Positions 1,837 to 15,643 of a stretch of 32,411 nucleotides of DNA are shown one piece after another; position 1 is the first letter of the stretch; every line of letters starts with the position of its first letter. Under the pieces are notes generated by a model that ran no database searches, had not been told where the DNA came from, and was given only the letters and a program-made list of their open reading frames with translations. Made by a program: the position numbers and the translations under genes. Source of the stretch: Pseudomonadota bacterium (GTDB lineage Bacteria; Desulfobacterota; Desulfarculia; Desulfarculales; Desulfarculaceae); assembly GCA_018819925.1 (NCBI GenBank), contig JAHJPG010000015.1:1-32411 (forward strand), read 5' to 3'.

Positions 1837-2424
1837 CTAGGCCGCAGCCTTGAAGCCCAGATCAAAGGCCTGGACGTTGGACGCGGCAAAGCGCTTTTTG
1901 GTCTGGGAGCGGATGATCTTCTTCATGGTCTTGACGTCGATGGGAAGCTCGACCGCGCCGAACAGCGCGCCCAGCATGACCATGTTCAGGCTCAACGGGT
2001 TCTTGGCCTCTTCGGCCAAGCTCTGGCCGTCGAAGGCGATGACCTTGCCCAGCTTGCTCCTCAAAAAGGCCACCGAGTCCTCGGGCTTGGGGTACGCCGC
2101 CGCGCCGATGGCCACGGTAAAGGGCGGTGAGGGCCGGGTGTTGGTGATGAGCAGGGTGTCCTTGTTGGCCTTGTTGAGAATGCGCAGGGCCTCCACCGGC
2201 TCGAAGCAGACCACCACGTCGGCTTCGGCATTGGACACGATGGGGCTGGTGGCGTCGCCCAGGATCACCGCCGACTCCACCACGCCGCCGCGCTGGGCCA
2301 TGCCGTGGATCTCGCTGACCACCACGTGCTGGCCCGCCGCCAGAGCCGCCTGGCCAAGAAGGTTGCTGGCCAAGAGGTTACCCTGGCCGCCCACGCCCAC
2401 GAAAACTATGCGTTGGGTGCTCAT
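1837..2424 (-). CDS. iorB: Indolepyruvate:ferredoxin oxidoreductase, beta subunit
   Basis: The 195-residue gamma-type subunit of the thiamine-dependent 2-oxoacid:ferredoxin oxidoreductase family. With IorA it oxidatively decarboxylates aryl pyruvates made by transamination of aromatic amino acids to aryl-acetyl-CoA, reducing ferredoxin in the cytoplasm. It shows the N-terminal GVGGQGNLLAS loop and the EIHGMAQRGG motif typical of this subunit, and its length is usual for IorB. The start is certain: AGGAGG lies six bases before ATG and overlaps the iorA stop codon, so the two are translationally coupled. Reduced ferredoxin from this reaction is the natural electron donor for the Rnf complex encoded nearby. 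Confidence 0.93.
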   Translation of the reverse strand: MSTQRIVFVGVGGQGNLLASNLLGQAALAAGQHVVVSEIHGMAQRGGVVESAVILGDATSPIVSNAEADVVVCFEPVEALRILNKANKDTLLITNTRPSPPFTVAIGAAAYPKPEDSVAFLRSKLGKVIAFDGQSLAEEAKNPLSLNMVMLGALFGAVELPIDVKTMKKIIRSQTKKRFAASNVQAFDLGFKAAA

Positions 2425-2434
2425 GATTTCCTCC

Positions 2435-4339
2435 TTAACCCTCGGCCTTCACCGGCAGGATTGCGTTTTCAGGACAAATTTGGGCGCACAGGGCGCAGCC
2501 GATGCACTGCAAGGGGTTGATCCTGGCCTGGCCGTTCTCCACGAACATGGCCGGACAGGCAACCTTTTTGATGCAGTCCAGGTGACCCTTGCACTTGTCC
2601 TCGACCACCTGGAAGACCCGCTTGGTGAGCGGAGCCACCCGGCGGGCGAACAGGGGGCAAAGCTCCTGGCTGATGACCACGCTGACCCCTTCAAAGGCGA
2701 TGGCCTCTTCAATGGCCTTTTTGGCGGAGCGCACCTTGAAGGGCTTGATGGTGGTGACATGCTGCACCCCCAGGCCGCGGATCAGGGGCTCCAAGGGGAT
2801 GTGGGTGGTGCTGTCGCCGATAGACTCGGTGTTCACCCCGGGGTGGGGCTGATGGCCGGTCATGGCCGTGGTGCCGTTGTCCAAAATCACCAGGGTGAAG
2901 TTGTGGTTGTTGTGCACCGCGTTGGCCAGGCCGGTGATGCCGCTGTGGAAGAAGGTGCTGTCGCCGATGAAGCTGACCACCTTCTGACCCGTAGCCCGGG
3001 AGATGCCCCCGGAGCTGGATACCGAAGAGCCCATGCAGATCAGGAAGTCCGCCGCCTTGATGGGCGGCAACACGCCCAGGGTGTAACAGCCTATGTCCGT
3101 GGGGTAGATGGTCTCGTCGCCCGCCACTTCCTTCACCGCGAAGTAGGTGGCCCGGTGGGGGCAGCCGGGGCAGAGGTTCGGCGGCCGGCCGGGAGGGGTG
3201 GGCATGCCGGCCAAGTTCAGCTCGGCGGTGTCCTTGTGTTTGATGCCAAAGTACTTGGCAATGGTCTGGCGCACCAGGCGGGGAGTGTACTCAAAGGCCC
3301 GGCTGAAAAAGGCGGGGGGCTCGATGTCCACGCTCTTGGCGGGAACCTTGCCAGCCACCTTGCCCGCGATCTCCACCGCGATGCCCTTTTCCTGGGCCAG
3401 GGCCCGCACGGCCTCTTCCAGGATGGGCTCCAACTCCTCCACCACCAGCACCTTGTCCACGCCTTTTAAGAAGCTGGCGATCTTTTTCTCGGGAAGGGGA
3501 TAGGTGAAGCCCAGTTTGAGCACCTTGATCTTGCTCTTGGCCCCCAGGTCCGCCACTGCGTCCATTACGTAGTTGGTCGCCACTCCGCTGGTGATCACCC
3601 CCAGCTTGCCCTTGCCGACCACCTTGTTGTAGGGGCTTTTTTCGCTGATGGCCTGGGCCTGGTTGTAGATACCCAGCAGGCGCAGGTGCAGGTTGCGGCT
3701 CACCGCGGGCACGGTGACGAACTGCATGGGGTTTTTAACGAACTTGCTGGTCTGCTTCACCTTGCCCAGTTTGACGAAGGGCACCGCTTCCCGGGCATGG
3801 TTCACTCGGGTGGTGGTCCTGATCATCACCGGGCTACCCAATTCCTCACTGAGATCGAAGCAGTAGGTGGTCATCTCCTTGGCCTCGGCCGGGCCGGTGG
3901 GCTCCAGCATGGGCAGACCGCTGAGGCGCGCGTAGTAGCGGTTGTCCTGCTCGTTCTGGCTGGAGAACAGGGAGGGGTCGTCGGCGGTGAGAATCACCAT
4001 GCCCGCGCGGACCCCCACGTAGGCCAGGGTCATCAGGGGATCGGCGGCCACGTTGACCCCGACGTGTTTCATGGTGCATAGGGTGCGAACCCCGCTGGCC
4101 GCCGCCCCGGCGGCGCATTCCAGGGCAACCTTCTCATTGGTGGAGTATTCGAAATAATACTTCACCTTGTCCGGGAACTGCTTCCTGAGGCGGTATAAAG
4201 TGTCTGGCACCTCCGAGGACGGCGTGCCCGGGTAACAGGTGGCAAAGGCCATGCCTGCCTCCAGGGCTCCGCGCACGATGGCCTCGTTTCCCAAGAGCAG
4301 GTGCTCTTTACCGCCTGAAGGAGTCAGCAGTACATCCAT
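2435..4339 (-). CDS. iorA: Indolepyruvate:ferredoxin oxidoreductase, alpha subunit
   Basis: The 634-residue catalytic subunit of arylpyruvate:ferredoxin oxidoreductase. In order it has a pyrimidine-binding domain (ATCYPGTPSSEVP near the N-terminus), a central transketolase-C-like domain, a thiamine diphosphate domain with a GDSTFFHSG...N Mg/TPP motif, a PGCPH cysteine motif just before that domain, and a C-terminal ferredoxin domain with CIGCALCAQICP. Length and order match known IorA. ATG at 4339 (minus strand) follows GGAG. It is the first gene of an iorA-iorB pair 10 bases apart. The physiological role could be aromatic amino acid fermentation or, in reverse, reductive synthesis from aryl acids; sequence alone cannot decide. 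Confidence 0.95.
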   Translation of the reverse strand: MDVLLTPSGGKEHLLLGNEAIVRGALEAGMAFATCYPGTPSSEVPDTLYRLRKQFPDKVKYYFEYSTNEKVALECAAGAAASGVRTLCTMKHVGVNVAADPLMTLAYVGVRAGMVILTADDPSLFSSQNEQDNRYYARLSGLPMLEPTGPAEAKEMTTYCFDLSEELGSPVMIRTTTRVNHAREAVPFVKLGKVKQTSKFVKNPMQFVTVPAVSRNLHLRLLGIYNQAQAISEKSPYNKVVGKGKLGVITSGVATNYVMDAVADLGAKSKIKVLKLGFTYPLPEKKIASFLKGVDKVLVVEELEPILEEAVRALAQEKGIAVEIAGKVAGKVPAKSVDIEPPAFFSRAFEYTPRLVRQTIAKYFGIKHKDTAELNLAGMPTPPGRPPNLCPGCPHRATYFAVKEVAGDETIYPTDIGCYTLGVLPPIKAADFLICMGSSVSSSGGISRATGQKVVSFIGDSTFFHSGITGLANAVHNNHNFTLVILDNGTTAMTGHQPHPGVNTESIGDSTTHIPLEPLIRGLGVQHVTTIKPFKVRSAKKAIEEAIAFEGVSVVISQELCPLFARRVAPLTKRVFQVVEDKCKGHLDCIKKVACPAMFVENGQARINPLQCIGCALCAQICPENAILPVKAEG

Positions 4340-4383
4340 GCTTCCACTCTCCGGCCAATATTGTTGATTGTTTTCCCTCGCCC

Positions 4384-4423
4384 ACCGTCGGAGCCCGCCG
4401 AGGGGCGTACCCCCTGACGACGG
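4384..4423 (-). other. Possible stem-loop in the iorA leader
   Basis: On the minus strand CCGTCG, TC, AGGGG, a short loop, CCCCT, a bulge and CGACGG can pair into an interrupted hairpin between the iorA start and any upstream promoter. It has no clear T run. It may be a leader structure or chance GC-rich pairing. Confidence 0.25.
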
Positions 4424-4577
4424 ACGACTTTGACGGCCCGGCGCCTTACAGTTACAAATTAGCTACAAAGTAACTATCGTGAATTTAGTCGTACATTGTA
4501 TTTGATGTCAAGGATAAAAGCGTTTTTCTACAGCAAAATACCCGCATGGAAAGCCTAGTATGGCTGACCGGCGGAGG

Positions 4578-4592
4578 CTAGGCGATGCCTAG
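4578..4592. promoter_or_regulatory. Perfect CTAGGC-GAT-GCCTAG palindrome before the signalling genes
   Basis: A 6-base inverted repeat with a 3-base spacer, with a further GCCTAG half-site at 4553-4558. It lies seven bases before the best -35 box of the response-regulator gene, a position typical of an activator site. The 335-base gap 4340-4674 otherwise holds the iorA leader and this promoter region. Confidence 0.4.
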
Positions 4593-4598
4593 TTGGCA

Positions 4599-4627
4599 TT
4601 GACTTCTAATACGCTCTGGTTTAAGGT
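4599..4627 (+). promoter_or_regulatory. Candidate sigma-70 promoter of the response-regulator gene
   Basis: TTGACT at 4599-4604, a 17-base spacer and TAAGGT at 4622-4627. The -35 box is good and the -10 box poor, which would suit an activated promoter. Confidence 0.35.
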
Positions 4628-4674
4628 CAAAATCAATTCCCACCCTCTTACATCACTCTCAGCCAGGTGTAAAA

Positions 4675-5067
4675 ATGGCTAAAATCCTTATTATCGACGA
4701 TGACGACGATTTCCGCGCCGCCACTTCCGCCATCTTGGAGTCGGCGGGGCACATGGTGCTGATCGCACACGACGGCAAGGCTGGCCTGGAGATGGTGAAG
4801 GCCGAAGATCCTGACTTGATCGTCCTGGACATCATGATGGATTCCATCTACGAGGGCTTCTCGGTCATAACCACCTTGCGGGCAACTCCGGAGTATATGG
4901 ACTTCCGCGATATCCCGGTGTTGATGTGTTCCGCGGTTAAGCAGATCACCGGCGAGCGTTTTGACATTCCGGCTGAAGCGCGTATCGCCCAAGGCGACGA
5001 CTTCCTGGATAAGCCTTTTACTTCCGAGGCGTTGTTTAACAAAGTTAATAAATTACTTCAAGCCTAG
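4675..5067 (+). CDS. Single-domain response regulator (CheY-like receiver)
   Basis: A 130-residue stand-alone receiver domain with no output domain. It has the acidic pocket (IIDDDDDF, residues 6-13), phospho-acceptor D52 in LIVLDIMMD, S86 as the switch Ser/Thr, and K113 in LDKPF. A loop of about 20 residues between the D52 strand and the next conserved segment is longer than in CheY and is typical of a receiver subgroup paired with hybrid kinases. ATG at 4675 has a modest CAGGTG site. The gene is followed 11 bases later by a receiver-histidine kinase and probably forms one operon with it, acting as phospho-relay partner. The signal sensed is not evident. Confidence 0.88.
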   Translation: MAKILIIDDDDDFRAATSAILESAGHMVLIAHDGKAGLEMVKAEDPDLIVLDIMMDSIYEGFSVITTLRATPEYMDFRDIPVLMCSAVKQITGERFDIPAEARIAQGDDFLDKPFTSEALFNKVNKLLQA

Positions 5068-5078
5068 GCGAGGATGGC

Positions 5079-6200
5079 ATGAGCCCTCACCGCCTCGAGC
5101 CCCGCCTCGAGCCGCACATCCTGTGCATCGATGACGACCCAGTTGCACGCGAGTCGGCCCAACTGCTTCTAAACCGTTGGGGCTACCGGGTCAGTTTGGC
5201 CGATTGCGGCGAGGCGGGTCTCGAAGCCATCGCCACGGCCCCTCCGGATCTGGTCTTGGTGGACCTGCAGATGCCGGGCATTGACGGCATCGAGGTGCTG
5301 GAGTGGGTGCGTCAAAACCACCCGTCCATAATCTGCGTGATGGTCACCGGGCACGCCACCCTGCAAAAGGCGGTGGAGGCCATGAAGGAAGGGGCTTACG
5401 ACTTTTTGGCCAAGCCCTTTTCTCCAGACGAGCTGAAACTGACCGTGGAACGCGGCCTGGAGCGGCGTAGGCTCGTCCTGGAGGCCGAGAGACTGCGCTC
5501 CGAAAAAGCTATAATGCAGGCCAACTTCGTCACCCTGGTTTCCCACCAGATGCGCTCCCCCTTGGCGGCGGTGCGCCAGCTTTTGGAGGTGCCGGTCAGC
5601 CAAGCGCTGGGGCCGGTGCCCGAAGCCTACCAAGGATTCATCAAAAGAGCGGCGGACCGCCTGGACTTGTTGGCCCGCACCCTCAACGCCTGGCTGGCCA
5701 TGAGCCGTTTGGACCAGGAAGGCATCTACAGCCGCATGACCACCGCGGAGATGGGCGCCCTGCTAGAGGACTTGGTCGAGCGGGCCGAGGCCGACGTGAC
5801 CGCGGCGGGCCAGACTCTCAAGGTTGAGATCATCGACGGTCAGAGCCTGCTGGAGGTGGACCGGGAGAGCCTGTTGGAGGCCCTGTACAACATCGTGAGC
5901 AACTCGGTGAAATACAACCGGCCTCAAGGGCTAGTCACCATTCGAGCCTGCAAAAGCCCTGACGGCGTGGAGTTGTCCATCAGCGACCAGGGTCCCGGTG
6001 TGTCCGCCCAGGAAGCCGAGTACATTTTCGATGAGTTTTACCGTTCTCGCCGCCGCGACATAAAGGACAAACCCGGCACCGGGCTGGGGCTGGCCATCTC
6101 CCGCAAGGTGGTCCGGGCCCACGGCGGGGAGATAAAAGTCACCTCCGGGCCTGGAGAAGGGGCCACCTTCACAGTGAGTCTGCCCTGTCTGGAAGGCTAA
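5079..6200 (+). CDS. Receiver-histidine kinase (REC-HisKA-HATPase_c)
   Basis: A 373-residue cytoplasmic protein without membrane segments. The N-terminal receiver has D62 (LVDLQMPG) and K112 (AKPF). A coiled helix leads to the dimerisation/phosphotransfer domain with H156 in LVSHQMRSPL. The ATP-binding domain follows, with N277 (YNIVSNSVKYN), DQGPG at 304-308 and GTGLGLA at 334-340. All catalytic residues are present. A kinase with its input replaced by a receiver is driven by another kinase or modulates a relay, so the adjacent single receiver is a likely partner. ATG at 5079 has GAGG five bases upstream. No DNA-binding output lies nearby, so the target is unknown. Confidence 0.92.
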   Translation: MSPHRLEPRLEPHILCIDDDPVARESAQLLLNRWGYRVSLADCGEAGLEAIATAPPDLVLVDLQMPGIDGIEVLEWVRQNHPSIICVMVTGHATLQKAVEAMKEGAYDFLAKPFSPDELKLTVERGLERRRLVLEAERLRSEKAIMQANFVTLVSHQMRSPLAAVRQLLEVPVSQALGPVPEAYQGFIKRAADRLDLLARTLNAWLAMSRLDQEGIYSRMTTAEMGALLEDLVERAEADVTAAGQTLKVEIIDGQSLLEVDRESLLEALYNIVSNSVKYNRPQGLVTIRACKSPDGVELSISDQGPGVSAQEAEYIFDEFYRSRRRDIKDKPGTGLGLAISRKVVRAHGGEIKVTSGPGEGATFTVSLPCLEG

Positions 6201-6214
6201 CGTACCGGTATTGG

Positions 6215-6243
6215 TTGACATGGCCGCCATCTATGCATAATAT
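6215..6243 (+). promoter_or_regulatory. Promoter of the rnf operon
   Basis: A perfect TTGACA at 6215-6220, a 17-base spacer and TAATAT at 6238-6243. The leader of about 200 bases before rnfC is GC-rich near its start and contains a short GCCGCaaGCGGC hairpin near 6400, but I recognise no riboswitch in it. Confidence 0.65.
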
Positions 6244-6451
6244 TTGGGCCCGGGTGGCGGGCTCATGGGCCCGCGCAGGGGGAAAACGCCAACTGGTTGT
6301 ATTTCCCATATAAATGCTCGGCCTTGATCGGCGAGGCTACGCCACGGCCGGATAATTTTTAGCCCACCTTGTGGCTTTATTCACGAAAGGCAACCATCAG
6401 CCGCAAGCGGCTTGTATAGCATCTGAGCGCCTGAACTGGAGTTCGTTGGTG

Positions 6452-7813
6452 ATGAAACTTTCAAATTGGTTTAAAGGCATAAGCCTTCCCCGCCCGCCAG
6501 CGGCGGCTCCGCCGGTAGGTTTGCCGGCCCCGGAAAAGGTCTATCTGCCCCTGCGCCAGCATCGGGGGGCGGTGGCCGAACCAAAGGTCGAGCCGGGACA
6601 GAGAGTGGCCCTGGGCCAAGTGGTGGGCGCCTCGGAGGAGTTCGAGTCGGCCGCCGTGCAGGCCACGGTCAGTGGCGTGGTGGAGGCCATCGTCGACACC
6701 GTGGACCCGGCCGGGGAAAAAGTACCCACCGTGGTCATCCAAAACGATGGAGCGGACGCCTGGGCCGACGAGTTGGCCGGTGCAGCCATCCTGGAAGACC
6801 CCGCCGCGGTAAAGGCCACCCGCCCCAGCCACCTGCTTAGGCGGCTGCGCGAGGCGGGCCTGGTGCGGGCCCAGGTGCAGGGACGCCCTCTGCACGTGGA
6901 CCTAAGCCCGCCCATGGCGCCCCAATCCTATCTCTATATGACCGGCATACCGGTGGTGCGGCCTATCGACACCCTGATCATAAGGGCAGTGGACGTCGAC
7001 CCGCCGGTTTGTCCCAACCAATCCTGCATGGGCGAGGCTTCCCAAGATTTGGCCGTGGGCGTGGCCGCCCTGGCTCGCATCAGTGGAGCCAAGCGGGTCA
7101 TCCTGGCCCTGCCCTCTGGAGTGGATGCCGCTGGAATCGCGGCCATTGCCGCGCAATATGAGTGGGAGGTCGCCTCGGTGAGCCAGAGGGCCTACCCCTT
7201 TGCCAGCGACAACCTTCTGGTGCAGTCGCTCACCGGCCGCGAGGTGCATACACCCTACGGCGAGCCCCGGGACGTGGGCGTGCTCTTGGAGCCTCTGATC
7301 AGCGCCTTGGACGTTGGCCGGGTGCTATCCAGTGGCCGTCCGGTCATCGATCGGGTATTCAGCGTGGCCGGCGAGGTCAAGAATCCCCAAACCTTCCGGG
7401 TCCGACTGGGCACCCCCATCAGCCAAGTGCTGGATGCGGCCGGCGGCGGCCCCTCCCGCCCGGGCAAGATAATCGTTGGCGGGCCCATGATGGGCCTGGC
7501 CATATTCGACCCCGCCACCCCAGTGACCAGGGAAACCGTGGGCGTGTTCGTTCAGAGCGCGGCCTCGGTGGTTGCCTACGCCGACCATCCCTGCATCCAC
7601 TGTGGACGTTGCGTGGCGGTGTGTCCGGTGAACCTCATACCTTCGGATTTGGGCAAGCTCTGCGAGTTCCGCATGTACGAGGACGCGGCCGAGATGAACT
7701 TGATGAACTGCATCGAGTGCGGCTGCTGCGCCTACGTATGTCCGGCCAGGCGCCCCATGGTCCACTTCCTGCGTCATGGTAAGAGCGAAGTTCTGGCCGG
7801 GAGGATGGAGTGA
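6452..7813 (+). CDS. rnfC: Rnf electron transport complex subunit RnfC
   Basis: The peripheral NADH-side subunit of the ferredoxin:NAD+ oxidoreductase (Rnf), 453 residues. It has a glycine-rich flavin/NAD region resembling NuoF, and near the C-terminus two CxxCxxC...CP ferredoxin motifs (CIHCGRCVAVCP from about 381, CIECGCCAYVCP from about 420). It is soluble and docks on the membrane subunits. ATG at 6452 is preferred over an in-frame codon at 6371, because the usual RnfC N-terminus (a short leader, then the LPLRQHRGA region) begins there and GGAG precedes it. First gene of rnfCDGEAB-apbE; its TGA overlaps the rnfD ATG. Confidence 0.96.
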   Translation: MKLSNWFKGISLPRPPAAAPPVGLPAPEKVYLPLRQHRGAVAEPKVEPGQRVALGQVVGASEEFESAAVQATVSGVVEAIVDTVDPAGEKVPTVVIQNDGADAWADELAGAAILEDPAAVKATRPSHLLRRLREAGLVRAQVQGRPLHVDLSPPMAPQSYLYMTGIPVVRPIDTLIIRAVDVDPPVCPNQSCMGEASQDLAVGVAALARISGAKRVILALPSGVDAAGIAAIAAQYEWEVASVSQRAYPFASDNLLVQSLTGREVHTPYGEPRDVGVLLEPLISALDVGRVLSSGRPVIDRVFSVAGEVKNPQTFRVRLGTPISQVLDAAGGGPSRPGKIIVGGPMMGLAIFDPATPVTRETVGVFVQSAASVVAYADHPCIHCGRCVAVCPVNLIPSDLGKLCEFRMYEDAAEMNLMNCIECGCCAYVCPARRPMVHFLRHGKSEVLAGRME

Positions 7814-8817
7814 TGAACCAAAACCTGCTAACCGTATCCACCTCCCCCCACATCCTGGGACGCACCACGGTGCGATCCATGTACTTGGAGTACATGATCG
7901 CCTTGGCGCCGGCCCTGTTGATGGGCTTGTACTACTTTGGAGCCCCCGCCCTGATCACGGTCCTTTTGGCCGTGGCCTCCGCGGCGGTGTCCGATTTCAT
8001 CGTCAGCTTTATAACCAAAAAGCCCTCCACTCTCAGCAACCTGCACATCATCTGCCTTGGGCTGGTGCTGGGCCAGATCCTTCCCCCCGGCGCGCCCTGG
8101 TGGCTGCCGGTGGTGGGCGGCGCGCTCACCGTGTTCTTGGGCATCGGCATCTTCGGCGGCATCGGCTACTACCCCATGAACCCGGTGCTGGTGGCCTGGG
8201 TGGCCCTGGCCATCTCCTGGCCCGAGGCCATGAACTCCTTCCTTGACCCCCTGCCCCTGGGCACCGAGGGCGACTGGGCGGAGGCCGAGACCCCACTGAT
8301 GCAGCTCAAGGGCGACATCGGCACCCTGCAAGCCTTTGAGCTAGGCGTCCTGTGGCTGGGCAAGGTTCCCGGAGCCATCGGAGCCACCAGTTCCTGGGCC
8401 CTCCTGGCCGGCGGCGTCTACCTTATCATCCGGCGCATCATCCCCTGGCAGATTCCCATCGGCGCCCTGTTGGGCGCGGTGGGCATGGCCCTTCTGGCCG
8501 CCTACACCGACCCCGCCATCGAAGAGTTGGGCTTGGAGGGATTCGCGGCCCACATGGACGTGGCTTGGTTCCACCTGGGCACCGGCGGCCTTTTGATCGC
8601 CGCCTTCTTCGTGGGACCGGAGCCGGTGTCTTCGCCGGTCACCCCCTGGGGAACCCTCCTGTTCGGAGTGGGCATTGGCTTGATGGCCATCATCGTGCGC
8701 ACCTGGGGCGGCCTGGTGGATGGCGCCTTCTATGGCGTGTTGCTGATGAACGCGGCAACCCCCCTGTTGGACCGTATACGCCCCCGGGTCATCGGAAAGG
8801 TGGTGAACGGTGCGTGA
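7813..8817 (+). CDS. rnfD: Rnf complex membrane subunit RnfD
   Basis: An integral membrane subunit of 334 residues with about nine or ten hydrophobic segments, homologous to NqrB and part of the ion-translocating core. The GAIGATSS segment near residue 190 fits the [S/G]AT site where FMN is covalently bound to threonine in this family. ATG at 7813 overlaps the rnfC stop (ATGA); a GTG one codon earlier is the only alternative. RnfG begins eight bases before its end. Whether Na+ or H+ is pumped cannot be read from the sequence. Confidence 0.95.
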   Translation: MNQNLLTVSTSPHILGRTTVRSMYLEYMIALAPALLMGLYYFGAPALITVLLAVASAAVSDFIVSFITKKPSTLSNLHIICLGLVLGQILPPGAPWWLPVVGGALTVFLGIGIFGGIGYYPMNPVLVAWVALAISWPEAMNSFLDPLPLGTEGDWAEAETPLMQLKGDIGTLQAFELGVLWLGKVPGAIGATSSWALLAGGVYLIIRRIIPWQIPIGALLGAVGMALLAAYTDPAIEELGLEGFAAHMDVAWFHLGTGGLLIAAFFVGPEPVSSPVTPWGTLLFGVGIGLMAIIVRTWGGLVDGAFYGVLLMNAATPLLDRIRPRVIGKVVNGA

Positions 8818-9385
8818 TATCATCAAAATGCTGGTGGTGCTCACCGTGATTTGCACGGCAAGCGGCTTTTCCCTGGCTCTGGTTCACGATGTGACCAGGG
8901 AGCCCATCGAGTACAGCCGGCTGAAATTCGTCAAGGAGCCCGCGGTCAAGGCCGTGCTTTCCGGCTATCAGAACGACCCCATCAAGGATCGCCTGAGCAT
9001 CCCGGTGGGAACCGATAAAAAGGGCAAGCCGGTCAAGTTGATCGTTTTCCCGGCCAAAAAGGACGGCAAGACCTTCGCGGTGGCCTTTGAATCATCCTCT
9101 GCCGGCTATCACGGCGACGTCGGGGTGATGCTGGGTGTGGACCTGAACTCCAAGAAGCTCACCGGCCTCAGCATCGTCAGCCACACCGAGACCCCCGGTC
9201 TGGGCGCCCGCATAATCGAGCCGAACTTCACCGACTCCTTCAAGGGCAAGCCCATGGACAAGGAGTTGGGTGTCGGTGACATCAACGCCCTTTCCGGGGC
9301 CACCGTATCCACCAAAGGCGTGGTCGCAGCGGTCAACAAGGCCCAGGCCACTTTGGACAAATACCGCGACAAGATGGTTCAGTAG
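8810..9385 (+). CDS. rnfG: Rnf complex subunit RnfG
   Basis: A 191-residue subunit with one N-terminal membrane helix (residues about 5-26) and an outward-facing FMN-binding domain. The SGATVST motif at 162-168 carries the threonine (T165) that receives covalent FMN from ApbE, which is encoded at the end of the operon. The GTG start at 8810 overlaps the rnfD end, so translation is probably coupled. Length and order match RnfG/NqrC. Confidence 0.95.
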   Translation: MRDIIKMLVVLTVICTASGFSLALVHDVTREPIEYSRLKFVKEPAVKAVLSGYQNDPIKDRLSIPVGTDKKGKPVKLIVFPAKKDGKTFAVAFESSSAGYHGDVGVMLGVDLNSKKLTGLSIVSHTETPGLGARIIEPNFTDSFKGKPMDKELGVGDINALSGATVSTKGVVAAVNKAQATLDKYRDKMVQ

Positions 9386-9396
9386 GGAGCGCGGTC

Positions 9397-10014
9397 ATGA
9401 GCATAACTAGAGAATTCACCAAAGGCTTGTGGGAAATCCTCCCGCCCTTCCGCCTGGTTCTGGGGCTCTGCCCCACCCTGGCGGTAACCACCTCGGCCGA
9501 AAACGGCATGGGCATGGGGCTGGCCACCACCTTCGTGCTGGTCTGCTCCAACCTGCTGGTGTCCTTGCTGCGCAAGATAATCCCCAGCAAGGTGCGCATC
9601 GCGGCCTATGTCGTGATTATCGCCAGCTTCGTGGTCATCGTGGAGCTGATGATGCAGGCCTATGCCTTCCCTCTGTATCAGGCGCTGGGCATCTTCATCC
9701 CCCTGATCGTGGTCAACTGCATCATCCTGGGCCGGGCCGAGGCCTTTGCCGGCAAGAACGGCCCGGTGGCCAGCATCGCCGACGGTTTGGGCGTGGGTAT
9801 TGGCTTCACCATCAGCCTCGCCGTGCTGGGCGCCTTCCGCGAGTTGATCGGCAGCGGCACCGTATGGGGCAACAGCGTCTTTTGGGAGAGCTTCGAGCCC
9901 TTCACCTTCATGGTGCGGGCGCCGGGCGCCTTCGTGGCCCTGGGCCTGTTCCTGGCCGCGATCAACCTGATCAGCTCCAAGCTTGACGATCGTAAGCGGA
10001 GGGCCCAGTCATGA
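9397..10014 (+). CDS. rnfE: Rnf complex membrane subunit RnfE
   Basis: A 205-residue membrane protein with six predicted helices, homologous to NqrD. The GLCPTLAVTTSAENG segment near the N-terminus contains the conserved cysteine that, with its counterpart in RnfA, binds the intramembrane iron-sulfur centre in the Rnf/Nqr family. A GGGAG site precedes ATG at 9397, 11 bases after rnfG; the stop overlaps the rnfA ATG. Confidence 0.95.
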   Translation: MSITREFTKGLWEILPPFRLVLGLCPTLAVTTSAENGMGMGLATTFVLVCSNLLVSLLRKIIPSKVRIAAYVVIIASFVVIVELMMQAYAFPLYQALGIFIPLIVVNCIILGRAEAFAGKNGPVASIADGLGVGIGFTISLAVLGAFRELIGSGTVWGNSVFWESFEPFTFMVRAPGAFVALGLFLAAINLISSKLDDRKRRAQS

Positions 10015-10601
10015 GTTTCGGCGACTACATGCTGTTTATCGTCAGCGCCATCTTGGTCAACAACATCCTGTTGGCCAAGTTCCTGGGCAACTGCCCCTTC
10101 CTGGGGGTCAGCAAGCGCATGGACACCGCCACCGGCATGTCCATGGCGGTCATCTTCGTCATGGTCATGGCGGGAATGATCACCTGGCTGGTGCAGTACT
10201 ACATCCTGGTTCCCCTTAACATCGAATACCTCCAGACCATCGCCTTCATCCTGGTGATCGCCGCCCTGGTGCAACTGGTGGAGATCGTGATGGCCAAGAG
10301 CCTGCCGGCCCTTTACCGGGCCCTGGGCATCTTCCTGCCCCTGATCACCACCAACTGCGCGGTGCTGGGTGTGGCCATCATCAACATCAACGAAGAATTC
10401 GACTTCGTGGACACCCTGGTGTTCTCCCTGGCCTCGGCCGTGGGCTACAGCCTGGCCCTGATCCTGTTCGCCGGCATCCGCGAGCGCTTCATGCTCACCA
10501 AGATGCCCAAGGCGTTTCAGGGCACCTCCATCGGCCTGGTGGTGGCCGGCTTCCTGGCCTTGGCCTTCAGCGGGTTCAGCGGGCTGGTGGGCGGCCACTA
10601 G
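10011..10601 (+). CDS. rnfA: Rnf complex membrane subunit RnfA
   Basis: A 196-residue membrane protein with six helices, homologous to NqrE and the topological mirror of RnfE. It has the conserved N-terminal NNILLAKFLGNCPFLGVS segment with the membrane cysteine, and LPLITTNCAVLG in the central half. ATGA overlap with rnfE indicates coupled translation. An 80-base gap separates it from rnfB. Confidence 0.96.
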   Translation: MSFGDYMLFIVSAILVNNILLAKFLGNCPFLGVSKRMDTATGMSMAVIFVMVMAGMITWLVQYYILVPLNIEYLQTIAFILVIAALVQLVEIVMAKSLPALYRALGIFLPLITTNCAVLGVAIININEEFDFVDTLVFSLASAVGYSLALILFAGIRERFMLTKMPKAFQGTSIGLVVAGFLALAFSGFSGLVGGH

Positions 10602-10682
10602 GCCGCGTTTCTAAAGAAGGGTGCCCAAGGAAGATCGACACCTGACAGCGCGGGCTGCGGCGCCCGCGAGGAGATCATAGGA

Positions 10683-12785
10683 ATGTTATTTGAAGCCCTG
10701 GCAATCGGAGGACTGGGTTTGGCCTCTGCCCTGGGCCTGGGAGTGGCCGCCAAGGTCTTCGCCGTTGAGGTGGACCCCCTGGTGGAGGCGGTAGAGGGAG
10801 CCCTGCCCGGCGCCAACTGTGGCGGCTGTGGCTACGCCGGCTGCGCCTCGGCGGCCCTGGCCATCGCCAGCGGCAAGGCTGCGGCCAACATCTGCGTGGG
10901 CGGCGGCCCCGAGGTAGGCGAGGCGGTGGCCCAGGTCATGGGGGTGGAGGTGGTCTACCGCGAGCCCGACGTCTCGCAAGTGGACTGCACCTACTCCACC
11001 CAGATAGCCCAACTGAAATATAAATACGACGGCGTGCAGGACTGCCGGGCGGCGGCCTTGTTGGCCGGCGGCCCCAAGGTATGCGAAATCGGCTGCCTGG
11101 GCCTGGGTTCCTGCGTCAAGGTCTGCCCCTTTGGAGCCATCGCCATCGGACCCGAGGGCTTGCCCGTGGTGGACCCCGCCCTATGCACCGGCTGCGGCAA
11201 CTGCGAAAAGGTCTGCCCCAAGAGCATCATTCACCTGACCTCGGTGACCAGGCGCATCCTTGGCTTCAACGCCAACTACAACTGCCTGGCCCCCTGCCAG
11301 GCCACCTGCCCGGCCCAGATAGACATTCCCAGCTACATACGGGCCATCGGAGAGGGGCGCTACGAGGACGCCGTCTCCGTGATCAAGGAGCACAACCCCC
11401 TGCCCCTGGTCTGCGGCAGGGTCTGCCCCCATCCTTGCGAGGATCAATGCCGCCGGGGCAAGACCACCGAACCGGTCAACATCAACCATCTCAAGCGCTT
11501 CGCGGCCGACTACGAGATGAACTCGGGCAAGCGGATTCAACCGTTCTGCTTGCCCAAGAACGACCGCAAGGTGGCCATCGTGGGCGGCGGGCCCGCCGGC
11601 CTCACCTGCGCCTACTACCTGGCCCGCCTGGGCTACGCGCCCACCATCTACGAGGCCCAACCCCACTTGGGCGGCATGCTGCGCTACGGCATCCCCGAGT
11701 ACCGCCTGCCCAAGAAGACCCTGGATTGGGAAATCCAGGGGATTTTGGATTTGGGCGTGGATGCCAAGACGGACATGGCCATGGGCGAGGGCTTTACCCT
11801 GGAGAGCCTCAGACAAGAGGGCTATGAAGCCATATTCCTGGGCGTGGGCTGTTGGTCCAGCCGGGGCATGCGGGTGGAGGGCGAGGACCTCGACGGGGTC
11901 CTGCCCGGCACGGACATGCTCATCGACCGCGGCAACCTCAAGGACACCCCGGTGGGCGAGAGAGTGGTGGTCATCGGCGGCGGCAACACGGCCATGGACT
12001 GCGCCCGCACCTGCTGGCGCCTGGGGGCCAAGGAGGTCACCGTCCTGTACCGCCGCACCGAAAAAGAGATGCCGGCCAACGCCATCGAAATCGAGGAGGC
12101 CAAGCACGAAGGGATCAAGTTCCACTTCCTGGCGGCCCCCACCAAGCTCGTCGGCGAAAACGGCAAACTCACCGGCCTGGAATACATCAAGATGGAATTG
12201 GGCGAGCCCGACTCCTCGGGCCGCCGGCGTCCGGTGCCCATCGAGAACAGCGAAACCATCCTGGAGTGCGACAACGTCATCGCGGCCATCGGCCAGTTCC
12301 CCGACCTAGCCTTCTTGGAAGAGGACGCCTCGGCCAAGGACTTGGCCATCACCAAGTGGAACACCATCGACGCCAACGTCGACGCCGGCACCACCAACAT
12401 CCCCGGCGTATTCAGCGGCGGCGACACAGTGACTGGCGCGGCCACCGCGGTGGAGGCCATAGGGGCCGGCCGCCGGGCCGCGCGGGCCATACACCTCTAT
12501 CTCAGCGACGAAGACCCCGGGCCTCTGGACAACTGGGTGCGCGGCCCCAAGGAGCTGCCCATGGTCAGCCAGACCCCGGACGCGGCTCCGGCAGGACCAC
12601 GAGCCAAGATGCCCGAACTCAGCGTCCCGGATCGCGCCAACAGCTTCGTCGAGGTGGAGCTTGGGCTCACCAAGGAGATGGCAATGGCCGAAACTCAGCG
12701 CTGCCTGCAGTGCGGACTCTATTGTTACCGACATAATGACCAGCCTTACGAGGCTTGGAAATGGGAGAGGAAGGATAATGCCTAA
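10683..12785 (+). CDS. rnfB: RnfB fused to a GltD/NfnB-like FAD-NAD(P) oxidoreductase
   Basis: At 700 residues it is more than twice the usual RnfB length. Residues 1-28 form the membrane anchor. C46, C49, C54 and C71 form the Fe-S domain typical of RnfB, and 134-178 hold two [4Fe-4S] ferredoxin motifs (GSCVKVCP, CTGCGNCEKVCP). From about 195 a second enzyme begins: cysteine motifs CLAPCQATC and CGRVCPHPCEDQC, an FAD site GGGPAGL at 301-307 and an NAD(P) site GGGNTAMD at 432-439, as in the small subunit of glutamate synthase and NfnB. The tail ends in CLQCGLYC. A GAGGAG-rich site precedes the ATG. The fusion suggests that ferredoxin entry into Rnf is linked to an NAD(P)H or bifurcating flavin centre. 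One continuous frame spans both parts. Confidence 0.93.
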   Translation: MLFEALAIGGLGLASALGLGVAAKVFAVEVDPLVEAVEGALPGANCGGCGYAGCASAALAIASGKAAANICVGGGPEVGEAVAQVMGVEVVYREPDVSQVDCTYSTQIAQLKYKYDGVQDCRAAALLAGGPKVCEIGCLGLGSCVKVCPFGAIAIGPEGLPVVDPALCTGCGNCEKVCPKSIIHLTSVTRRILGFNANYNCLAPCQATCPAQIDIPSYIRAIGEGRYEDAVSVIKEHNPLPLVCGRVCPHPCEDQCRRGKTTEPVNINHLKRFAADYEMNSGKRIQPFCLPKNDRKVAIVGGGPAGLTCAYYLARLGYAPTIYEAQPHLGGMLRYGIPEYRLPKKTLDWEIQGILDLGVDAKTDMAMGEGFTLESLRQEGYEAIFLGVGCWSSRGMRVEGEDLDGVLPGTDMLIDRGNLKDTPVGERVVVIGGGNTAMDCARTCWRLGAKEVTVLYRRTEKEMPANAIEIEEAKHEGIKFHFLAAPTKLVGENGKLTGLEYIKMELGEPDSSGRRRPVPIENSETILECDNVIAAIGQFPDLAFLEEDASAKDLAITKWNTIDANVDAGTTNIPGVFSGGDTVTGAATAVEAIGAGRRAARAIHLYLSDEDPGPLDNWVRGPKELPMVSQTPDAAPAGPRAKMPELSVPDRANSFVEVELGLTKEMAMAETQRCLQCGLYCYRHNDQPYEAWKWERKDNA

Positions 12786-13791
12786 GAGCCTGGACCGCCG
12801 CTCCTTCCTGCGGTTTGCCGGCAGCACGGCCCTGGGTGCGGCCGCCCTGCCCCTGGTTTCGCCGGCCATCGGCCTGGCCAGCCTGGGCCGGGGCCTAAAC
12901 GCCGCGCAGGAAACTCGGATGATGATGGGCACCCTGGTCTCGGTTACGGTGCTGGACCCCTCGCCAACCAAGGCCCAAGAAGCCATGAACGCCGCCTTCG
13001 GGGCCATGGCCAAGCTTACGCCCGTCTTTGACCGCCACCGCCCCGGCGGGCCCGTGGCCGCCTTCAACGCCGAGGGCCGCCTGACCGAGTTGGAGCCCCG
13101 CCTCAAGGCGGTGTTGGAGCTGTGCCGCGCGGTGCAGGAAAGCACCGGCGGGGCCTTTGACCCCAGCGTGGCCCCGGTCATCGACACGGTCAAGGCCAGC
13201 TTCATCCAAAACCACCAGCCCCCCAGCCGCACCCAGATGGCCCAGGCCCTCTCGGCGGTGGGCGGGATTCGCTACGACGGCCGCAGCCTGCGCCAGACCA
13301 AGCAAGGCGCGGGCATCACCCTGGACGGCGTGGCCAAGGGCTTCATCGTGGACGAGGGCCTGGCTGCCGCGTCCAGGGCCGGGGCCAATCATGTGCTCAT
13401 CAACGCCGGCGGCGACGTGGGCGTCTTGGGCGACCGGGGCGGCAAGCCCTGGCGGGTGGCCGTGGCCGACCCGGACCAGCCCACCAAGCCCAAACTGACC
13501 GTTTCCCTGACCAGCGGAGCCCTGGCCACCAGCGGTGACTACGAGGTCTACTTCGACCGCGAGCGGCTGTATCACCATATCGTCAACCCGGCCACCGGGC
13601 GCATCCCCGGTTCGGGCCACAGCGTGAGCGTGCGCGCTCCCAAGACCTCCCTGGCCGACGCCCTGGCCACGGCCTGCTTTGTCATGCCGCCGGCCGAAGC
13701 TCACCGCTTCCTGACCAGCCGCCCGGGCCTGGAGGGCCTCATCCTCACCCGCTTCGGGCAGCGCTACCAGACCAAGGGTTTCGCCGCCTAG
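12778..13791 (+). CDS. apbE: FAD:protein FMN transferase (ApbE)
   Basis: A 337-residue flavin transferase that splits FAD and attaches FMN to threonine in SGAT motifs, here most likely of RnfG and RnfD. The N-terminus has a twin-arginine signal (DRRSFLRFAG, then a hydrophobic stretch), consistent with work on the outer face of the membrane. Family motifs include MMGTLVSVTV, GGAFDPSV, LDGVAKGFIVD and INAGGDVGVLG, plus ATSGDYEVYF and HHIVNPATG near the C-terminus. ATG at 12778 overlaps the rnfB stop and follows AGGAAGG; the longer in-frame extension upstream lies inside rnfB. It is the last gene of the operon. Confidence 0.95.
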   Translation: MPKSLDRRSFLRFAGSTALGAAALPLVSPAIGLASLGRGLNAAQETRMMMGTLVSVTVLDPSPTKAQEAMNAAFGAMAKLTPVFDRHRPGGPVAAFNAEGRLTELEPRLKAVLELCRAVQESTGGAFDPSVAPVIDTVKASFIQNHQPPSRTQMAQALSAVGGIRYDGRSLRQTKQGAGITLDGVAKGFIVDEGLAAASRAGANHVLINAGGDVGVLGDRGGKPWRVAVADPDQPTKPKLTVSLTSGALATSGDYEVYFDRERLYHHIVNPATGRIPGSGHSVSVRAPKTSLADALATACFVMPPAEAHRFLTSRPGLEGLILTRFGQRYQTKGFAA

Positions 13792-13811
13792 GCAGCCCTA
13801 AACCAACCCCC

Positions 13812-13845
13812 AAAAGCCCGATGGCCATCGGCCATCGGGCTTTTT
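13812..13845 (+). terminator. Rho-independent terminator of the rnf-apbE operon
   Basis: AAAAGCCCGATGGCC, a 3-base loop and GGCCATCGGGC followed by five T. The stem is perfect and begins 20 bases after the apbE stop. The flanking A run also allows weak action on the other strand. Confidence 0.95.
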
Positions 13846-13969
13846 GATGTAAATTATTACCTTTTGACTTTTTTTCTGCCGGTATTGTAAGTTTAGTTAT
13901 CGTTAAGAGCACATTGAGCAGTCTGGTTTAGTCGGCATTATTTCTTTGCCCTTCTAAGGAGTGATGTCC

Positions 13970-15643
13970 ATGTTTGGTATCGGGCGCTCCCCACTTAGAT
14001 GCTTTTACGTTTCCCTTTTCATTTTCAGTCTGTTGCTCGCCCCTCCGGCATCGTTGGCCGCGGATTTAAGCATACCGCCCAGTGAAATCCTGGCCATCCT
14101 CACCGCCGCCCAGGTCAACCAGGAATTGATTGACCAGGGCCGGGCCACCCCCAGCACCCTTCCCTTTAAACAGGGCTCCAGCGTGTATGAGGTGAAGTTG
14201 AGCCAACCGGCCTGGTTCGTGCGCTACTACGCCTATGACCCCACCCGCCTCAAGGGAGGCGCCGTGGGAGGGTGGACCATGTTCGCCTCCGCGGTGCGCG
14301 GCCTGAACGTGGCTCAGGTGCGCAGCCTCTTCGCCCTTCCCGCCATGCCCAATTATGTGTCGTCCGTGGTGGTGCCCGCCGGGACCACGCTGCGCCTGGG
14401 CTGGGCGGGCCCCATTGCCGGCTGGGGGACCGGCGGCGGGGAGCAGTTTTTGATGATGGACCGCATCGCCATCGACAATTACCATCCCCAGAACGCCTTC
14501 CCGGCCATGGTCTATCCCCAGAGCCTAAGCTCCCGGGTCGGCGGCGGCCTTGGAGGCGTAATGGCCGGCTACATAGACAACCTGCCGGCCTGGTCGCCGT
14601 TCAGCCTGCTGGAAGTGGCGCGTTTGGGCATGGAGTACACCCCGCCCCAGCAGATTGCCCAGGCCCTCGCTCAGACCTCCGCCGAGCGCTATGACAGCCT
14701 CACCCGCATAGGGATAAACGACAGCCTTCTCTTTGCTTCCAGCCTGCCCTGGACCGTGGCCCCGTTAGCCGGAGGCGCGCCTTACGCGCCCGCCGGCAAG
14801 GCTGAAAACGCTTCGGAATACAAGGTCTGGGCCCGGGGCGCGGCGGCCTACCAAAGTTTCGACACCGTGGACCAGCACTCCGGCTACAACAGCGTGGCCG
14901 GTGGCATAGTCAGCGGAGTCACCCGCCAAATGGGCCGGACCGCCTTGGGCGGAGCGGTGGGAGTGATCTACGACAGCTTCGACTGGCAAGACAACCCCGG
15001 CGACGGCGGGGTGGCCAGCTATTACCTGAGCCTTTATGGCAACCGGCGCTGGGGGTCGGCCTTTGCCGGAGCCTACCTGGCCGGCGGCTACCACTTGGCC
15101 GATGTCAACCGCAAGATATCCTTCCCCTTGGTGGACATCGTCGCACGTTCAAAGCCAGAGTCCATGACCGCGGCCCTGGGCCTTAGCGGAGGCCTGGACT
15201 GGCAATTGAACGGGTGGCAGGTGCAGCCTTTGGCCCAAGCCCATTTGGTGTACCTGAACCAGCAGGCCTTCAGCGAACACAACGCCTATGACCTTAATCT
15301 GGACGTGGACAGCCTTGAAGCCTGGAGCCTGCGCACCACCTTGAGCCTGGGGGTCAGCAAGTCCTATGCCTGCGGCCAGGACGGCTCCTGGAGCCCCTAC
15401 GCCAGCCTGGGCTGGGGCCTGTTGCTGCCCCTGGACGACCGTCAGATCACCGCAAGCTTCAACGGGCAACCCAACAGCTTCACGGTGGAGGGCTACAGCG
15501 ACGCCCTTAACACCCTTTTGCTGGGATTGGGCGTCAAACTGAAGCTGGCTCCGGGACGAACCGTGACGGTGGGCTATGACGGTGAATTGGGCCAGGACTA
15601 TATGAGCAATCGTCTGAGCGCCTGGCTGAAGATAGACTTCTAG
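13970..15643 (+). CDS. Autotransporter-like outer-membrane beta-barrel protein
   Basis: A 557-residue exported protein. ATG at 13970 is chosen because AAGGAG lies eight bases upstream; the ATG at 13964 is too close. Residues 1-31 are a signal peptide ending ASLAA. Residues about 32-200 form a compact domain with GGWTMFAS, a VPAGTTLRLGWAGP segment and GTGGGEQF. From about residue 280 alternating aromatic/hydrophobic strands resemble an autotransporter barrel, ending with WLKIDF, the expected C-terminal aromatic signature. There is no long beta-helical passenger, so the N-terminal domain itself must be the surface or periplasmic effector; its activity is unknown. TTGACT at 13864 may belong to its promoter. 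The gene stands alone between two terminators or convergent genes. Confidence 0.75.
   Translation: MFGIGRSPLRCFYVSLFIFSLLLAPPASLAADLSIPPSEILAILTAAQVNQELIDQGRATPSTLPFKQGSSVYEVKLSQPAWFVRYYAYDPTRLKGGAVGGWTMFASAVRGLNVAQVRSLFALPAMPNYVSSVVVPAGTTLRLGWAGPIAGWGTGGGEQFLMMDRIAIDNYHPQNAFPAMVYPQSLSSRVGGGLGGVMAGYIDNLPAWSPFSLLEVARLGMEYTPPQQIAQALAQTSAERYDSLTRIGINDSLLFASSLPWTVAPLAGGAPYAPAGKAENASEYKVWARGAAAYQSFDTVDQHSGYNSVAGGIVSGVTRQMGRTALGGAVGVIYDSFDWQDNPGDGGVASYYLSLYGNRRWGSAFAGAYLAGGYHLADVNRKISFPLVDIVARSKPESMTAALGLSGGLDWQLNGWQVQPLAQAHLVYLNQQAFSEHNAYDLNLDVDSLEAWSLRTTLSLGVSKSYACGQDGSWSPYASLGWGLLLPLDDRQITASFNGQPNSFTVEGYSDALNTLLLGLGVKLKLAPGRTVTVGYDGELGQDYMSNRLSAWLKIDF

What the first reader, a model, noticed from the sequence alone, without database searches (positions are those of the whole stretch)
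10683..12785. RnfB fused to a GltD/NfnB-like flavoprotein
One uninterrupted frame joins a complete RnfB to an FAD/NAD(P) module with its own cysteine clusters. This would place an NAD(P)H site directly on the ferredoxin-entry subunit of Rnf, possibly allowing bifurcation or NADPH-linked electron input. Classical Rnf complexes lack this.
Basis: partly seen in the sequence, partly recalled or inferred. Interest (0 to 1): 0.6.

Follow-up and report, generated by a model that had tools for sequence, protein, structure and literature searches.

The report
Rnf subunit fused to NADPH flavoprotein
In this sulfate-reducer-type bacterium the ferredoxin-side subunit of an ion-pumping membrane complex (Rnf) is fused to an NADPH-binding flavoprotein while the usual NADH site on another subunit is lost; the fusion is a known but biochemically untested Rnf type, and what is new here is evidence on how the module probably works and that one Rnf core may be served by two such subunits.

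Summary
The fusion is real. Window 10683-12785 is one 700-residue frame: complete RnfB (1-190) plus a GltD-like FAD/NAD(P) module (200-608) with a cysteine-rich tail. It closes an rnfCDGEA-B-apbE operon. Full-length homologues occur across Desulfobacterota, in UBP15 and in one Aminicenantes MAG. The type has been reported ("Tol2-type"/Rnf2; PMC5109826, PMC11887813) and never tested biochemically.

What I add: (1) RnfC beside a fusion has lost the FMN/NADH motifs in 30 of 30 loci; they persist in 13 of 15 loci with stand-alone RnfB. The nucleotide site has moved from RnfC to RnfB. (2) The module is StnC/NfnABC-type: Lys271 matches the lysine of non-bifurcating StnC, whereas NfnB and this genome's own NfnB-like protein have glutamate. 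So plain NADPH relay is favoured over bifurcation. (3) Fusions form two deep clades: A with the NAD(P) site intact (this one), B with it lost, often beside RseC-family and NuoF-like or formate-dehydrogenase genes. (4) 15 of 19 genomes with two fusions have a single rnfD, suggesting one pump served by two input subunits.

Binding of NADPH, direction of flow and the partner at RnfC are inferred.

The parts
10683..12785 (+). rnfB-gltD fusion gene, 700 aa
10683..11252 (+). RnfB part (residues 1-190): N-terminal membrane helix, FeS domain (C46, C49, C54, C71), 4Fe-4S ferredoxin domain
   Evidence: TIGR01944 over cut-off; PF04060, Fer4; PDB RnfB 7zc6_B, 9eri_B
11280..12506 (+). GltD/StnC-like module (residues 200-608): Fer4_20, FAD and NAD(P) Rossmann folds
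   Evidence: fold match 9bov_A Z 40.4 over 466 residues, 8oh5_C Z 38.7
11493..11495 (+). codon of K271, equivalent of StnC K170 (non-bifurcating); NfnB has Glu
   Evidence: PMC10482914
11970..12080 (+). NAD(P)-binding motif GGGNTAMDCART and YRRTEKEMPAN (residues 430-466)
   Evidence: intact in all clade A fusions, lost in clade B
12702..12725 (+). C-terminal CLQCGLYC (C674, C677, C681), possible extra Fe-S cluster
   Evidence: invariant in alignment A1; region aligns with StnC/NfnABC but not NfnB
6452..7813 (+). rnfC (Met start 6452; frame from 6371); both 4Fe-4S clusters kept, FMN/NADH motifs lost
6851..7021 (+). stretch of rnfC where GxGGAxFPT and NGAECEPYLTxD are replaced (EAGLVRAQVQGRPLHV ... 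RAVDVDPPVCPN); approximate coordinates
7810..8817 (+). rnfD
   Evidence: TIGR01946
8810..9385 (+). rnfG (model RnfG_DVU2794)
   Evidence: NF045876
9397..10014 (+). rnfE
   Evidence: TIGR01948
10011..10601 (+). rnfA
   Evidence: TIGR01943
12778..13791 (+). apbE flavin transferase; probable ATG overlaps the end of the fusion gene by 8 bases
   Evidence: PF02424; sequence

Best explanation
This is the RnfB of an Rnf2-type complex. The C-terminal StnC-like module binds FAD and, most likely, NADPH, and passes electrons one by one through its own Fe-S clusters into (or out of) the RnfB clusters, then through RnfA/E, RnfG and RnfD to RnfC. RnfC keeps its two 4Fe-4S clusters but not the FMN/NADH site, so its outer partner is not a pyridine nucleotide. 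The nucleotide site has in effect moved from the RnfC end to the RnfB end of the pump. Shown here: the fusion, its motifs, the loss in RnfC, Lys instead of Glu next to FAD, and the operon. Inferred: NADPH rather than NADH, no bifurcation, the electron path and ion pumping. Not known: direction, and the partner at RnfC (a ferredoxin, a quinone at RnfD, or a periplasmic cytochrome at RnfG).
For: RnfC motifs lost in 30 of 30 loci with a fused RnfB against 2 of 15 with a separate RnfB (Fisher p 1.4e-9, not corrected for kinship). One of the two exceptions is Methanosarcina (L148), whose Rnf is known to work without NAD (own knowledge). Nuo51 domain score of RnfC falls from 174-191 bits (classical) to 43-20 bits or no match in fused loci; the window's own is 35.7. 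The RnfC model keeps the fold (Z 44.5 to 9eri_C). NAD(P) motif intact in all 34 clade A fusions of the tree. Best solved relatives are NfnABC/StnC. K271 is invariant in the alignment of 28 fusions and equals StnC K170; NfnB chains 5jca_L and 4ylf_B, and this genome's NfnB-like protein (L006), have Glu there. In the own genome only two RnfBs pass the model's cut-off and both are fusions; rnfD is single.
Against: No biochemistry exists. The NADPH preference rests on the YRRT..EMPAN motif shared with NADPH enzymes. Non-bifurcation rests on one ligand position, the cluster spacing and overall similarity to StnC. Loss of FMN from RnfC is read from motifs; Pfam Complex1_51K still scores just above its cut-off in the window (35.7 against 31.2), so weak flavin binding is not excluded. 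StnC C114 is not conserved (I215 here).
Confidence: 0.62

Rival explanations
1. The module bifurcates like NfnB: NADPH electrons split at FAD, one to ferredoxin, the other through the Rnf chain to a better acceptor.
For: Same fold as NfnB (Z 31 to 5jca_L); RnfB keeps ferredoxin-type clusters.
Against: Lys271, not Glu, beside FAD; spacing CPHPCEDQC as in StnC, not CPQEEQCEGAC as in NfnB; closer to StnC/NfnABC by sequence and fold; the StnC FAD does not bifurcate (PMC10482914); no NfnA gene seen beside the fusion.
Confidence: 0.12
2. Inverted Rnf: ferredoxin (or another one-electron carrier) docks on the bare 4Fe-4S clusters of RnfC and NADP+ is reduced at RnfB, so the complex is a ferredoxin:NADP+ enzyme with the two ends swapped, or runs in reverse, driven by the ion gradient.
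For: RnfC keeps both cluster motifs in all loci checked although the nucleotide motifs are gone. If ferredoxin and NADP(H) both acted at RnfB the current would bypass the membrane.
Against: No docking evidence; the ferredoxin-type domain of RnfB is also conserved; direction is not testable from sequence.
Confidence: 0.18
3. The module is a remnant or a structural add-on without nucleotide chemistry.
For: A sister clade has lost the NAD(P) motif and persists.
Against: In clade A, to which this gene belongs, FAD and NAD(P) motifs are kept at about 50-56% identity across families.
Confidence: 0.06
4. Assembly or sequencing artefact joining two genes.
For: None.
Against: Same junction in many independent genomes; the related Rnf2 complex of D. 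multivorans was detected by proteomics (PMC5109826).
Confidence: 0.005

Closest known systems
Rnf2 / Desulfobacula toluolica Tol2-type Rnf (PMC5109826, PMC11887813)
   Same: RnfB of about 700 aa with a NAD-binding part; RnfC without a working NADH site; same gene set.
   Different: RnfC of the window is less eroded: SLBB and a weak Nuo51 match remain, whereas a Desulfobacula RnfC (L089) has neither. No multihaem cytochrome in the window.
StnC of StnABC and NfnA of NfnABC (8oh5, 9bov, 9n5u)
   Same: GltD-like module with FAD, NADPH motif, lysine beside the proximal cluster, and extension to about residue 680.
   Different: There it is joined to a NuoG/Fdh-like domain and a HydBC-like bifurcating pair; here to RnfB and a membrane pump.
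Classical Rnf (Acetobacterium woodii 9eri, Clostridium tetanomorphum 7zc6, Azotobacter 8ahx)
   Same: All six subunits, RnfB N-terminal part, fold of RnfC.
   Different: No flavoprotein on RnfB; RnfC carries FMN and NADH.
NfnB (NfnL) of NfnAB
   Same: Fold and cofactor arrangement.
   Different: Glu cluster ligand, separate NfnA partner, soluble, bifurcating.
Na+-NQR (NqrF, NqrA)
   Same: Works alike: nucleotide enters at the single-helix subunit, and the RnfC homologue NqrA has no cofactors.
   Different: NqrF is an unrelated FNR-type protein; not a member.

Membership tests
Rnf complex (RnfABCDGE) | all six subunits in one operon | tested here: met
   C, D, G, E, A and B over or at family cut-offs
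Rnf complex (RnfABCDGE) | RnfC with FMN/NADH motifs GxGGAxFP and NGAECEP (classical ferredoxin:NAD Rnf) | tested here: not met
   so not a classical ferredoxin:NAD Rnf
Rnf2 / Tol2-type Rnf | RnfB about 700 aa with NAD-binding sites besides the cluster domains | tested here: met
   in one clade with Desulfobacula and Desulfosarcina fusions
Rnf2 / Tol2-type Rnf | RnfC lacks the NADH-ubiquinone oxidoreductase and SLBB domains (as written in PMC5109826) | tested here: inconclusive
   FMN/NADH motifs lost, but PF01512 (35.7, cut-off 31.2) and SLBB (46.9, cut-off 27) still pass
Electron-bifurcating NfnB | Glu ligand of the 4Fe-4S cluster next to FAD | tested here: not met
   Lys271
Electron-bifurcating NfnB | NfnA partner subunit | not tested
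   the neighbouring genes were assigned to other families, but no search of the genome for NfnA was made
StnC-type NADPH module | conserved Lys (K170) beside the proximal cluster and GltD fold with NADPH motif | tested here: met
StnC-type NADPH module | NADPH oxidation activity | not testable with these tools
   needs protein

The most novel reading that the evidence does not exclude
RnfB-type fusions are exchangeable electron-input subunits of one Rnf pump. Clade A takes NADPH directly. Clade B, whose NAD(P) site is dead, takes electrons from a neighbouring NuoF-like NADH dehydrogenase or a formate dehydrogenase, often with an RseC-family helper. Both plug into a single rnfCDGEA core.
Probability: 0.35. 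Interest if true: 0.75.

Novelty: new variant of a known kind. Interest (0 to 1): 0.48.

Why it matters
Rnf is treated as the ferredoxin:NAD pump of sulfate reducers, and flux models and mutant phenotypes (for example D. alaskensis, PMC4215793) are read that way. If the nucleotide site sits on RnfB, prefers NADPH, and RnfC has none, the reaction and perhaps the direction assigned to this pump in a widespread group of sediment bacteria need revising. A lysine/glutamate marker and an RnfC-motif marker make the question directly testable.

Tried and rejected
Artefact of assembly: rejected. Bifurcation by the module: disfavoured by K271 and cluster spacing. Multihaem cytochrome as the universal partner: most Desulfobacterales loci with a fusion have a haem-rich frame next to rnfC, but the window and Desulfocarbo have none, so it cannot be the general answer; PMC4215793 also found dhcA dispensable. 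That the fusion is an extra copy beside a normal RnfB: rejected for this genome. A literature search for RnfB with GltD found nothing on the fusion; the prior description turned up under 'large RnfB'. The supplementary text of PMC11887813 (fig. S18), which compares Rnf1 and Rnf2, could not be read. Whether Dde_0586 of D. alaskensis itself is the long form was not checked; Desulfovibrionaceae relatives (L090, L131) have it, although PMC11887813 assigns that family Rnf1 and PMC11434368 calls it a loss of rnfB with an FAD-dependent oxidoreductase in its place, which is probably this fusion (inference). The two-fusions/one-core count rests largely on drafts and on setting aside 399-447-codon hits as NqrB by length and score. 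No model coordinates were available, so cofactor distances were not measured. One alignment call failed on a stop in a reference that overran the gene end and was repeated without it.

Full report
Observation. Window 10683-12785 (+) is a single 700-codon frame with a ribosome-binding-like GAGGAG upstream. Residues 1-190 are a complete RnfB with the N-terminal helix, the GANCGGCGYAGC cluster and the ferredoxin domain. Residues 200-608 are a GltD-type module with Fer4_20, FAD and NAD(P) Rossmann folds, and the tail carries C674, C677 and C681. The gene follows rnfC, rnfD, rnfG, rnfE and rnfA and overlaps apbE by 8 bases. In this genome (96% complete) only two proteins pass the RnfB model's cut-off; both are such fusions, this one and one on contig C59. 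rnfD is present once.

Conservation. Full-length matches in one open frame occur through the genus and family (93-71% identity), in many Desulfobacterota families, and in named genomes: Desulfocarbo indianensis, Desulfosarcina alkanivorans, Desulfobacula, Pseudodesulfovibrio, Desulfovibrio, two near-identical UBP15-type MAGs and one Aminicenantes MAG. Across 395 phylum genomes RnfB frames form two size groups. A stop hidden in the linker is therefore excluded.

What happened to RnfC. In classical Rnf the NADH/FMN site is on RnfC. In the window the FMN/NADH stretches GxGGAxFPT and NGAECEPYLTxD read VRAQVQGRPLHV and RAVDVDPPVCPN. Testing both motifs over all loci with a complete RnfC: 0 of 30 keep them when RnfB is fused, 13 of 15 when RnfB stands alone. 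The two exceptions are Methanosarcina (L148), whose Rnf is known to serve methanophenazine rather than NAD (own knowledge), and a Desulfofervidaceae MAG (L134). The 4Fe-4S motifs of RnfC are kept throughout. The Nuo51 score shows a gradient: 174-191 bits in classical RnfC, 83 in L134, 36-43 in the window and its nearer kin, none in Desulfobacula. The predicted RnfC keeps the RnfC fold (Z 44.5, rmsd 2.4 over 428 residues, to 9eri_C), with a poorly predicted insertion next to the lost loop. Kinship among loci means the p-value (1.4e-9) overstates the evidence, but UBP15 and Aminicenantes agree with Desulfobacterota.

What the module is. The best solved relatives are NfnA of NfnABC (9n5u, 47%), NfnABC of Caldicellulosiruptor (9bov) and StnC (8oh5), ahead of NfnB (5jca), by sequence and by fold (Z 40-39 over about 470 residues against Z 31 over about 400). 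In StnC the FAD does not bifurcate and the proximal cluster is liganded by K170, where NfnB has a glutamate (PMC10482914). K170 aligns with K271 here, invariant in 28 aligned fusions. NfnB chains have LERF where the fusion has LKRF. The same genome also encodes a protein with the NfnB pattern (L006, CPQESQCEGVC...LERF), a useful internal contrast. The YRRTEKEMPAN motif matches NADPH-dependent relatives. The most likely chemistry is NADPH:Fe-S electron relay without bifurcation (inference).

Two clades. A tree of 64 fusions splits into two fully supported halves. Clade A (34 rows, including this gene) keeps the NAD(P) motif, and 27 rows lie beside rnf genes. Clade B (30 rows, including the own genome's second copy at C59) has lost it (for example GGGKQTLAAAR, no RR) while keeping the FAD-type motif and all clusters. 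Further loci show clade B both inside rnfCDGEAB operons (again with RnfC motifs lost) and outside them. It is repeatedly next to an RseC/MucC-family gene, with a NuoF/HydB-like gene (L101, L106, L162, L173, L178, L179), a NuoG/formate-dehydrogenase-like gene (L165, L166, L172, L174, L175, L177) or FdhA plus FdhB-like genes (own genome and kin). So where the fusion loses its own nucleotide site, a separate NADH or formate enzyme tends to lie next to it.

One core, two input subunits. Of 19 genomes with two full-length fusions, 15 have a single rnfD once NqrB-like hits are set aside. In G380 and G240 the one rnfD lies beside the clade B fusion; in the window's family beside clade A; in G097, G435 and G286 beside neither. 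This suggests, and does not prove, exchangeable input subunits.

Mechanism. If ferredoxin and NADPH both act at RnfB, current between them would not cross the membrane, so a pumping reaction needs a partner at the other end. RnfC now offers only 4Fe-4S clusters; a quinone at RnfD or a periplasmic cytochrome at RnfG are alternatives. A haem-rich frame sits next to rnfC in most Desulfobacterales loci but not in the window. Direction and partner stay open.

Known or new. The long RnfB and the altered RnfC were described for D. toluolica Tol2 and D. multivorans, with the remark that the mode of action differs and awaits verification (PMC5109826). Rnf2 is abundant and constitutive in Desulfobacteraceae (PMC11887813). 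The 2025 Rnf/NQR review does not mention Desulfo- genera, NADPH or fusion (PMC12174285). New here, as far as the held literature shows: the systematic RnfC test, the StnC-type lysine, the two clades with their neighbours, the one-core/two-fusions count, and the occurrence outside Desulfobacteraceae. The window is a less eroded variant of that known kind.

Noticed in passing
own genome C59:429-2474 (L002): Second RnfB-GltD fusion with a degenerate NAD(P) Rossmann motif, followed by an FdhB-like protein and the start of a molybdopterin formate-dehydrogenase-like gene; contig ends there.
   Followed up: partly
L101, L106, L162, L173, L178, L179: Recurrent cassette of NuoF/HydB-like protein, RnfB-GltD fusion without NAD(P) site, and RseC/MucC-family gene, in some cases outside any rnf operon.
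   Followed up: partly
L134 (Desulfofervidaceae MAG), 5817-14160: Stand-alone RnfB, RnfC without the FMN/NADH motifs, and RseC-family plus universal-stress-protein genes right behind rnfB; electron partner unclear.
   Followed up: partly
L080 and L087 (UBP15-type MAGs), about 12600-14300: Frame with 22 CXXCH motifs (very large multihaem cytochrome) directly downstream of a fused rnf operon.
   Followed up: no
The genome search G134, G166, G220, G244: Shorter (about 600 codons) proteins matching residues 101-684 only, that is without the RnfB membrane helix and first cluster domain.
   Followed up: no
L124 (Salidesulfovibrio brasiliensis), 3132-5245: Fusion gene split over two overlapping frames, either a frameshift in the draft or a real break.
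   Followed up: no
window 13961-15643 (+): Protein with an autotransporter beta-domain directly after apbE.
   Followed up: no
window 1837-4339 (-): Two-subunit 2-oxoacid:ferredoxin oxidoreductase (POR domains), a possible ferredoxin source, upstream of the rnf operon.
   Followed up: no
window 4675-6200 (+): Response regulator and response-regulator/histidine-kinase hybrid just upstream of rnfC.
   Followed up: no
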